Of a stretch of DNA of 64,000 nt, positions 59,452 to 62,134 are shown piece by piece. The notes under the pieces were generated by a model. It saw only the letters and a list, made by a program, of their open reading frames with translations. It did not search any database and was not told where the DNA came from. The DNA is from Mariprofundus sp. (GTDB lineage: Bacteria; Pseudomonadota; Zetaproteobacteria; Mariprofundales; Mariprofundaceae): assembly GCA_030951045.1 (NCBI GenBank), contig JAUZQJ010000021.1:16944-80943 (forward strand). The letters run 5' to 3'. A program made the translations under genes and the position numbers. Every line of letters starts with the position of its first letter. Position 1 is the stretch's first letter.

Positions 59452-61182
59452 ATGGGTATTTATAATGCACTATATATCGGCGCTTCCGGTCTTTCATCGT
59501 TTGGTGAGGCTGTGCGTGTAGTTGGTGATAATATCTCCAACGTCAACTCTCTGGGTTTTAAGAGCCAGAATGTAAACTTTTCAGATGTGCTTTCACAAAC
59601 AGTGGGTGTATCCAGGTCTAATATTGCTAACCAGGTAGGTAATGGTGTGCGTATCGGTTCAATTACCCGTGATGCTGCGCAGGGGTCGTTGCAGAACACC
59701 ACCAGCCCTACAGATATGGCGATCAATGGTAATGGGCTCTTTGCCATGCGCGATCCGGCCACAGGTCAGTTATCTTATACCCGAGCGGGTGCATTCATTC
59801 TGGATAAAGATTTCAATTTGATTGATGCGCAGGGTAACGTGGTTCAAGGGTTTCCTGTGGATCAAGTTACCAATACAGCAACTGGTAATGTTGGCGATAT
59901 TACCTTCGCTAATCTGGCAGCGCAGGCGCAGGCAACCACTGCAGTTACTGCTGCGGTTACATTGGATTCCAATGCAACAGTGTTGGCTACAGGTACTGTG
60001 TTTGATCCGAATAATCCGGCCACATTCCATTATAAAACAGAAGTGAATGTGTTTGATTCACTTGGTCAGACCCATGCTACGAGTTTGCAGTATACTAAAG
60101 TTGGCCAGGATTCTGCAGGCAATACCGTTTGGGACTGGCATGCTTCTGTTGATGGTGGCGACCTGGCCGGTGGTACACCCGGTGTTGCCACACCCATTGG
60201 CGGTGGTTCAGCGGCAGTATCAACTATAACGCCTGCCGTCGCTGCAGTTGCTGATACGACCAGTGGTGCATTCACAGTGGCTAGTACTGCTGCAGCAGCA
60301 GGTACTGCGGTTACAAACTTCCAGGCATCGGCAGTGGGTGCGACCTACAGCATTGCTTCTGATGGAGCTGGTTTAATTACTGTTACATCGAGTGTGGCCG
60401 GAGTAAGTGGTACGGGAACGTTTGCTGCTGGCGGCACTCAGGCAATCACCTTAAGTGATGGTACGATTGTTAGTGTTAATTATGGTGCTACCGATGTGGT
60501 TGGTACAGCTGGTACATTGGCAGCATCAACCGGTGGTACTGCTGCCGTTGCTGCTGTTGTTGCAGCAGCAGGTCCACAGTCCATTGTGTTCGGACCTAAC
60601 GGTGAGTTGGTGCAGGAAAATTCACCCGCTTTAACATTCAACTGGAGCGGTGCTGCTCCAAGCACTGTCTCTCTGGATTTCGGTAATGCTGCAGGTCAGG
60701 GAACTCTTTATCCCGTAAACTTAGCAGATGGTGGGCAGGGTGTTACAGGTACCGGTCTTGAAGCAACTGTGCAGGTGGCCGGTTCATTTGCTACCCGTCA
60801 GATGACACGTGACGGCTTTGCATCAGGCTTCCTGGATAAACTGGAAACGGATTCTTCCGGTAAGATCTTCGGTGTATTTACCAATGGTCAGCGTCGTGGC
60901 CTGTATCAGGTGGCGCTAGCGAACTTTCCGAACGATGCTGTGTTAAACCATGTCGGTAATAACCTGCTGCAGGAAAGTATCGCATCAGGTACACCAGTAC
61001 TGGGTCTGCCTGGAGCTGGTGGTATGGGCACCATCTCACCATTCGCACTGGAGCAGTCCAATGTGGATCTGGCAGCGGAATTTGTGAAACTCATCATTAT
61101 TCAGCGTGGTTATGAGGCCAACTCCAAAACCATTCTGACTACCGATCAGATGCTTTCATCTTTGATGCAAGTGAAACGTTAA
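59452..61182 (+). CDS. flgE: Flagellar hook protein FlgE with Ala/Thr/Gly-rich central insert
   Basis: LYIGASGLSSFGEAVRVVGDNISNVNSLGFKSQ; C-terminal NVDLAAEFVKLIIIQRGYEANSKTILTTDQML. Confidence 0.94.
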   Translation: MGIYNALYIGASGLSSFGEAVRVVGDNISNVNSLGFKSQNVNFSDVLSQTVGVSRSNIANQVGNGVRIGSITRDAAQGSLQNTTSPTDMAINGNGLFAMRDPATGQLSYTRAGAFILDKDFNLIDAQGNVVQGFPVDQVTNTATGNVGDITFANLAAQAQATTAVTAAVTLDSNATVLATGTVFDPNNPATFHYKTEVNVFDSLGQTHATSLQYTKVGQDSAGNTVWDWHASVDGGDLAGGTPGVATPIGGGSAAVSTITPAVAAVADTTSGAFTVASTAAAAGTAVTNFQASAVGATYSIASDGAGLITVTSSVAGVSGTGTFAAGGTQAITLSDGTIVSVNYGATDVVGTAGTLAASTGGTAAVAAVVAAAGPQSIVFGPNGELVQENSPALTFNWSGAAPSTVSLDFGNAAGQGTLYPVNLADGGQGVTGTGLEATVQVAGSFATRQMTRDGFASGFLDKLETDSSGKIFGVFTNGQRRGLYQVALANFPNDAVLNHVGNNLLQESIASGTPVLGLPGAGGMGTISPFALEQSNVDLAAEFVKLIIIQRGYEANSKTILTTDQMLSSLMQVKR

Positions 61183-61200
61183 ACACCGATTAATACTGTA

Positions 61201-61255
61201 GCGTCTCAAATTAACAGGCCGGAGGGTAAGCCTCCGGCCTGTTAATTTGAGACGC
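61201..61255. terminator. 25-bp perfect inverted repeat with 5-nt loop downstream of flgE
   Basis: gcgtctcaaattaacaggccggagg-gtaag-cctccggcctgttaatttgagacgc. Confidence 0.7.
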
Positions 61256-61571
61256 GTGTGAGGTGGCAGATGAACCCGTAGTAGTGAAGAAGTTCCGGCC
61301 AAGTGTGGAGGACAAAACCGGAATGACCGCTGCTATTGATGCAGTGGGATCGGCCTGATCAAAAGTCATGTCGATGTGCGAAGGGGAAGAAGCAGATACA
61401 GAAGATTCCGACAGGGTTTCGCTCTGTTCAGTCGGGATGCACAAGCCATGCGATAGCATGGGGTGTTTCTGTCTCAGTTATCTGAGGTAAGTATTTGCAG
61501 GAGCCGTATACGAGGTCCGTACGTACGGCTCTGTGAGAGGGAGGCGGGAGTGATCCCACCCTCTACTCGAT
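61256..61571 (+). mobile_element. Degenerate ORF-less group II intron (domain V and VI recognisable)
   Basis: 5' GTGTGAGG-type end; domain V gagccgta-tacg-aggtc-cgta-cg-tacggctc (61501-61531) with 2-nt bulge; domain VI gagggaggcgggagtgatcccaccctctactcgat to 61571. Confidence 0.7.
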
Positions 61572-61588
61572 ATTTGAAATTGGCAAAT

Positions 61589-62134
61589 TTAGTCGGCAAT
61601 AATACGTGCAGCAGTTTCACTGAGATGCGCACCATAACTGCGTGCGGCGGCGAGGGCTGCATCACTGATGCCTGATGGCATGCCTTCATGATTGCCTGTA
61701 CGGCCATAAGGTCCCCATTGCAGACCGCCATCGGCATAACCGGGTAATGATTTGGGAAATCCGATCACGATCATGCCGTGTTCGAGAAAGTTGGAATAGA
61801 GAGAGATCATCGTTTGCTCAACGCCGCCTCCTGCACCACCAAAACCGCCACCGGTTGCAAATACGCCGCCGACTTTACCTTCCAGTGAATCATCCATCCA
61901 TAGCTTTCCTGCCTGATCAATCAGTTTTTTCATCGGCCAGGCCATAGACCCCATATGCACAGAGGTACCAAAAAGGATGATGTCTGCATGGATAAGGTCA
62001 TCTAAATCCGTGTCTGCAGCATTTTTTAACACTATATGTGCACCTGCTTGGCTGACCTTTATACCTGCTGCGATGGCTGAGGCCATTTTCTGTGTGTTGC
62101 CGTAATCGGAATGATAAGCAATGAGTACATTCAT
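61589..62134 (-). CDS. Flavodoxin-fold NAD(P)H:quinone oxidoreductase, WrbA-like
   Basis: MNVLIAYHSDYGNTQKMASAIAAGI, FGTSVHMGSMAWPMKKLIDQ, FATGGGFGGAGGGVEQTMIS. Confidence 0.82.
   Translation of the reverse strand: MNVLIAYHSDYGNTQKMASAIAAGIKVSQAGAHIVLKNAADTDLDDLIHADIILFGTSVHMGSMAWPMKKLIDQAGKLWMDDSLEGKVGGVFATGGGFGGAGGGVEQTMISLYSNFLEHGMIVIGFPKSLPGYADGGLQWGPYGRTGNHEGMPSGISDAALAAARSYGAHLSETAARIIAD

What the first reader, a model, noticed from the sequence alone, without database searches (positions are those of the whole stretch)
61256..61571. Short ORF-less group II intron remnant inserted right after the flgE terminator hairpin
Seen: a 34-nt-type domain V (GAGCCGUA/UACG-AGGUC-CGUA/CG bulge/UACGGCUC) then a domain VI hairpin with a CUACUCGAU end. 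A GTGTGAGG 5'-like end begins at the base of the 25-bp hairpin. At about 316 bp it has no room for an RT and much of domains I-IV must be missing. Knowledge: bacterial class C group II introns preferentially insert just after transcription terminators.
Basis: partly seen in the sequence, partly recalled or inferred. Interest (0 to 1): 0.6.

Follow-up and report, generated by a model that had tools for sequence, protein, structure and literature searches.

The report
Broken mobile intron after flgE terminator
A dead, shortened copy of a common bacterial mobile RNA element (a group IIC-type intron) sits just behind the stop signal of the flagellar hook gene; it is ordinary genomic debris, though the join to the neighbouring hairpin records an unusual copying scar.

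Summary
Window 61499-61571 (+) matches the Rfam group II intron D5/D6 model above its gathering score, and 14 relatives support D6 with covariation. A same-genus genome, G010, carries the empty site: flgE terminator, U-run, then the 3' flank. So the intron's 3' end was inserted directly after the U-run, as group IIC introns do. Two other defective copies in the same genome also follow terminators (rpoD, cytochrome c), both empty in G010.

Correction: GTGTGAGG is not the intron's 5' end. The C140 copy starts GTTTGCCCGGC directly after a terminator, and GTGTGAGG is its base 330. The window copy lacks the first 329 nt and the reverse-transcriptase gene. It cannot be a working intron in cis.

The 25-bp perfect hairpin is partly a secondary product. 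The outer part of its 3' arm (AATTTGAGACGC) differs from G010, matches the 5' arm perfectly, and overlaps the intron's TTGAGATGC at 8 of 9 bases, pointing to a template-switch or microhomology junction. No RT was found in the host assembly (87% complete), yet two copies share the same ORF-less domain IV, so the ORF-less form probably moved in trans.

The parts
59452..61182 (+). flgE-like flagellar hook gene; its terminator is the insertion target
Evidence: The same 3' end and terminator occur in G010, G008 and G012.
61201..61255 (.). 25-bp perfect hairpin: the core (about 61211-61243) is the ancestral flgE terminator stem; the outer 3' arm is derived
   Evidence: Inverted repeat. G010, G008 and G012 have the same kind of core followed by TTTT. 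Folding energy -50.8 against -28.9 kcal/mol for the G010 site.
61244..61255 (+). Derived 12-nt outer 3' arm AATTTGAGACGC: perfect complement of the window's own 5' arm; replaces the U-run; 8/9 match TTGAGACGC/TTGAGATGC to intron positions 321-329
   Evidence: Comparison with G010 and with the C140 intron.
61256..61498 (+). Intron interior: 3' end of domain I, domains II-III and an ORF-less domain IV. Limits between these domains were not determined
   Evidence: 89-99% identical to the C140 and C44 copies; aligned with ORF-less relatives L050, L051, L055, L065.
61465..61488 (+). Possible relic of the end of the RT gene (GVSVSVI-stop, 15 nt before D5; coordinates approximate)
   Evidence: RT genes in relatives end ...TGTSVSV* (L067) or ...TGISVSI* (L043), the stop about 16-19 nt before D5 in L067 and others. 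The profile test was not significant, so this is suggestive only.
61499..61571 (+). Domains V and VI; 3' end of the intron at 61571 (CTACTCGAT)
   Evidence: RF00029 hit; D6 covariation at 8 pairs with an unpaired A in the 3' strand.
61572..61588 (.). 3' flank (ATTTGAAATTGG...) that directly follows the terminator U-run in the empty site
   Evidence: G010: CCTGTTTT|ATTTGATATTGG.
61589..62134 (-). WrbA-like flavodoxin / NAD(P)H:quinone oxidoreductase gene, convergent neighbour (assignment by eye)
   Evidence: 181-aa ORF; 96% identical protein at the empty site in G010.

Best explanation
It is a dead 3' fragment of a group IIC-type intron retroelement. An intron RNA (probably already without its RT gene and moved by an RT encoded elsewhere) integrated behind the flgE terminator, its 3' end joining the base after the U-run. 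Shown: the insertion site, the 3' end, the missing 329-nt 5' end and the missing RT gene. Inferred: the 5' end was lost either because reverse transcription stopped early or in a later replication error. In either case the DNA end at the terminator hairpin was extended by copying the hairpin's own 5' arm, or was joined by microhomology and then made perfectly palindromic, and was rejoined inside the intron at TTGAGA(C/T)GC. With the 5' splice site and most of domain I gone, it should not splice or move in cis, and no role could be shown.
For: D5/D6 covariance hit and D6 covariation. Empty site in G010. Other copies in the same genome: C44 after the rpoD-like terminator and C140 after a cytochrome-c-like gene's terminator, with empty sites in G010. 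C140 supplies the true 5' end and places GTGTGAGG at intron base 330. Relatives with intact 5' ends (L050, L051, L055, L065, L067) sit after terminator-like stems. The RT of relative L067 is closest to GsI-IIC RT in the PDB and passes TIGR04416. Group-II-D1D4-3 hits in C140, C44 and relatives but none in the window copy.
Against: The order of events at the 5' junction cannot be settled from one allele. The 5' arm also differs from G010 at three of about 18 positions, so which arm was the template is open. A direct repeat ATTTGA at 61245-61250 and 61572-61577 allows a target-site-duplication reading. The class (IIC in the strict sense or a neighbouring terminator-targeting class such as g6/U1/U2) was not settled by a tree.
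Confidence: 0.93

Rival explanations
1. A complete, unusually short (316 nt) ORF-less group II intron with 5' end GTGTGAGG that still splices.
For: GTGTG resembles the GUGYG consensus 5' end (consensus given in PMC4028801); D5 and D6 are intact.
Against: The same GTGTGAGG is internal, at base 330, in C140, and lies in the same alignment column in C44 and the ORF-less relatives. The D1D4-3 match present in C140, C44 and the relatives is absent here.
Confidence: 0.02
2. The intron inserted whole, and the 5' 329 nt plus the U-run were lost later by a replication template switch at the hairpin (as opposed to abortive reverse transcription at insertion).
For: The perfect hairpin and the 8/9 homology at the junction fit template switching at inverted repeats, a described mechanism (PMC8794818 abstract). 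The other copies also suffered secondary deletions: 94 bp between GAAGAAG repeats in C44, and the 3' end plus about 137 bp of flank in C140.
Against: Joining of a 5'-truncated cDNA would give the same junction, and the ATTTGA repeat on both sides is a weak hint of a staggered insertion.
Confidence: 0.5
3. The remnant retains a regulatory role, for example as an extended 3' end for flgE mRNA or as a barrier between the convergent flgE and wrbA transcripts.
For: Very stable hairpin (-50.8 kcal/mol); structured remnant.
Against: The U-run was lost. The remnant was seen at this site only in the window's genome; flgE and its terminator stand without it in G010, G008 and G012. Conservation could not be measured.
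Confidence: 0.04

Closest known systems
Bacterial group IIC (class C) introns inserting after intrinsic terminators (Robart et al. 2007, as cited in PMC7161350 and PMC8919778)
   Same: D5/D6 structure; insertion directly after the terminator U-run; relatives' RT closest to a solved IIC RT.
   Different: The window copy lacks the 5' 329 nt and the RT gene. Intact relatives begin GTTTG or GTTCG, not the GUGYG consensus.
ORF-less bacterial group II introns (Simon et al. 2008, reviewed in PMC4424553)
   Same: No RT; relatives of the same family carry the RT, and two ORF-less copies in this genome share one domain IV.
   Different: Those are complete ribozymes; this copy has lost most of domain I. 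No RT was found in this (incomplete) assembly.
Truncated group II intron fragments in bacterial genomes (PMC4028801: a majority of copies are truncated)
   Same: Same kind of object.
   Different: The 5' junction lies in a perfected palindrome, which allows the truncation event to be partly read.
Template switching at hairpins / quasi-palindromes (PMC8794818, PMC7202029)
   Same: One arm of an inverted repeat is changed so that it matches the other perfectly.
   Different: Here the event also joins to a mobile-element interior; the link is inferred.

Membership tests
Group II intron | Domain V (with domain VI) recognised by a covariance model | tested here: met
   RF00029, 42.1 bits, above the gathering score.
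Group II intron | Domain VI stem with an unpaired (branch-site) A | tested here: met
   Consensus fold leaves the A before CTCGAT unpaired; eight covarying pairs, all in D6.
Group II intron | 5' end GUGYG and complete domain I | tested here: not met
   First 329 nt absent; no D1D4 model hit in the window. Hence filed as a remnant, not as a functional intron.
Group II intron | Intron-encoded RT/maturase in domain IV | tested here: not met
   No room for it and no ORF; no RVT_1 hit in the assembly.
Group II intron | Self-splicing activity | not testable with these tools
   Needs in vitro splicing or RT-PCR.
Group IIC (class C) intron | Insertion directly after an intrinsic terminator | tested here: met
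   Empty site in G010 for the window copy, and the same for C44 and C140.
Group IIC (class C) intron | RT belonging to the class C clade | tested here: inconclusive
   Only relatives carry an RT; L067's best PDB match is GsI-IIC RT (E=1.2e-83), then another group II RT/maturase (7uim). No class-labelled tree was built, so g6/U1/U2 are not excluded.
ORF-less mobile group II intron | Same ORF-less form at more than one site | tested here: met
   C44 and C79 share 188 bp of ORF-less domain IV-VI at 99% identity, with different target sites.

The most novel reading that the evidence does not exclude
An ORF-less lineage of terminator-targeting introns spread in this genome through an RT supplied in trans (or since lost), and its 5'-truncated copies are sealed by copying the target's own terminator hairpin before jumping into the intron. 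The terminator would thus be both target and repair template.
Probability: 0.25. Interest if true: 0.4.

Novelty: new member of a known kind. Interest (0 to 1): 0.2.

Why it matters
Mainly an annotation result: it explains an otherwise odd structured intergenic segment and a 25-bp perfect palindrome. It adds three terminator sites with natural empty-site controls to what is known of IIC targeting, and one readable 5'-truncation scar that suggests how truncated intron copies, said to be the majority in bacteria, may be sealed at a hairpin target.

Tried and rejected
A search for an RT (RVT_1) in the host genome found none; the assembly is 86.9% complete in 164 contigs and C44 ends inside the intron, so absence is not proven. 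Using the L067 RT against 78 genomes of the order found only RTs at most 42% identical, no obvious partner. A profile of RT C-termini against the three frames of the remnant gave no significant hit (E=0.2), so the GVSVSVI-stop relic stays a suggestion. Weak Rfam matches MIR6143 and sX6 at the hairpin are well below their gathering scores and were rejected as chance matches to a long hairpin. Trans-splicing between the 5' half at C140 and the 3' half at C79 was considered and rejected: there are no coding exons to join, and C140 is followed by an unrelated gene.

Full report
What was checked. The D5/D6 module is real: RF00029 matches window 61499-61571 (+) at 42.1 bits, above its gathering score of 40, and is the only curated-level RNA hit in the whole window. 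Fourteen D5/D6 sequences from diverse bacteria give one consensus fold with eight covarying pairs, all in D6, and an unpaired A at the usual branch-site place. The 25-bp perfect hairpin is at 61201-61255.

Where it inserted. In a same-genus genome (G010, neighbouring protein 96% identical, flanking DNA about 95% identical) the same flgE-wrbA gap is empty...AACAGGCTGGAGGATAATCCTCCGGCCTGTTTT|ATTTGATATTGG.... The window reads ...CCTGTTAATTTGAGACGC[remnant ... CTACTCGAT]ATTTGAAATTGG. So the 3' end of the intron joined the base right after the terminator's U-run. Two more copies in the same genome agree. C44 ends CTCGAT|ATCTCTGATCTG, and in G010 this sequence directly follows the U-run of the terminator behind a gene ending like rpoD. 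C140 begins GTTTGCCCGGC directly after the terminator of a cytochrome-c-like gene, again empty in G010. Insertion after terminators is the known habit of group IIC introns (PMC4424553; PMC8919778).

What is missing. Three copies give the anatomy. C140 has the 5' end but lost its 3' part. C44 is cut by the contig end, lacks the ORF, and has a 94-bp deletion between GAAGAAG repeats. The window copy lacks the 5' end and the ORF. The D1-D4 model (RF02001) hits C140, C44 and relatives but not the window. A complete ORF-less form would be about 650 nt (estimate). Relatives with an RT, such as L067 at 2,101 nt, begin GTTTGCCCGGC and follow a terminator; the L067 RT is a TIGR04416 group II RT, nearest to GsI-IIC RT among solved structures. 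The five relatives whose 5' end was read, and C140, begin GTTTG or GTTCG, not GUGYG.

The RT question. The host assembly has no RVT_1 match, and the order has no RT above 42% identity to L067's. Yet C44 and C79 carry the same ORF-less domain IV (188 bp, 99%) at different sites. The simplest inference is that an ORF-less form moved with an RT acting in trans; known bacterial ORF-less introns nearly always share a genome with a related RT-bearing intron (PMC4424553). The assembly is incomplete, so an RT copy may simply be unassembled. Other ORF-less relatives exist in Acanthopleuribacter, Ningiella, a deltaproteobacterial MAG and Colwellia; of these four genomes, three encode a related RT and the deltaproteobacterial MAG does not.

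The hairpin. In G010, G008 and G012 the terminator stem is followed by TTTT. In the window the U-run is replaced by AATTTGAGACGC, a perfect complement of the 5' arm. The fold goes from -28.9 (G010 site) to -50.8 kcal/mol. The last nine bases match intron bases 321-329 at 8 of 9. Two readings fit: (A) the end was extended by copying the 5' arm and then switched into the intron at TTGAGAYGC; (B) the ancestral CCTGTTTTATTTGA was joined to the intron through TTGA, leaving ATTTGA on both sides of the remnant, and the arms were later made identical by hairpin template switching. In (B) two 5'-arm changes relative to G010 (G to T, T to C) agree with intron-derived bases. Both need hairpin-templated synthesis, a described process (PMC8794818). 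One allele cannot decide between them.

Verdict. The object is a non-functional remnant of a known kind of element. Interest is low, with a small bonus for the readable junction.

Noticed in passing
L011 (G000:C60:12861-12959, minus strand): A second, different group II intron D5/D6 (39.8 bits, just under the gathering score) at a contig end in the same genome; its D5 differs clearly from the flgE remnant.
   Followed up: partly
L050, L051, L055, L065, L067, C140 (L010:4248): Members of this intron family with a readable 5' end start GTTTGCCC (L055 GTTCGCCC), not the GUGYG consensus.
   Followed up: partly
L065 genome (G116, Candidatus Colwellia aromaticivorans): About a dozen D5/D6 hits with the same score (47.3 bits), many at contig ends, suggest a high-copy intron; the only RT found there is 38% identical to L067's.
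   Followed up: no
61245-61250 and 61572-61577: Direct repeat ATTTGA on both sides of the remnant, possibly a target-site duplication, which is not expected for group II introns.
   Followed up: partly
L111 (G028:C13:122125-122220): A closely related D5/D6 in another genus of the family, close to a run of N and short tandem repeats; probably a broken assembly of another intron copy.
   Followed up: no
L009 3274-3451: 6S RNA gene on the contig that carries the C44 intron copy.
   Followed up: no
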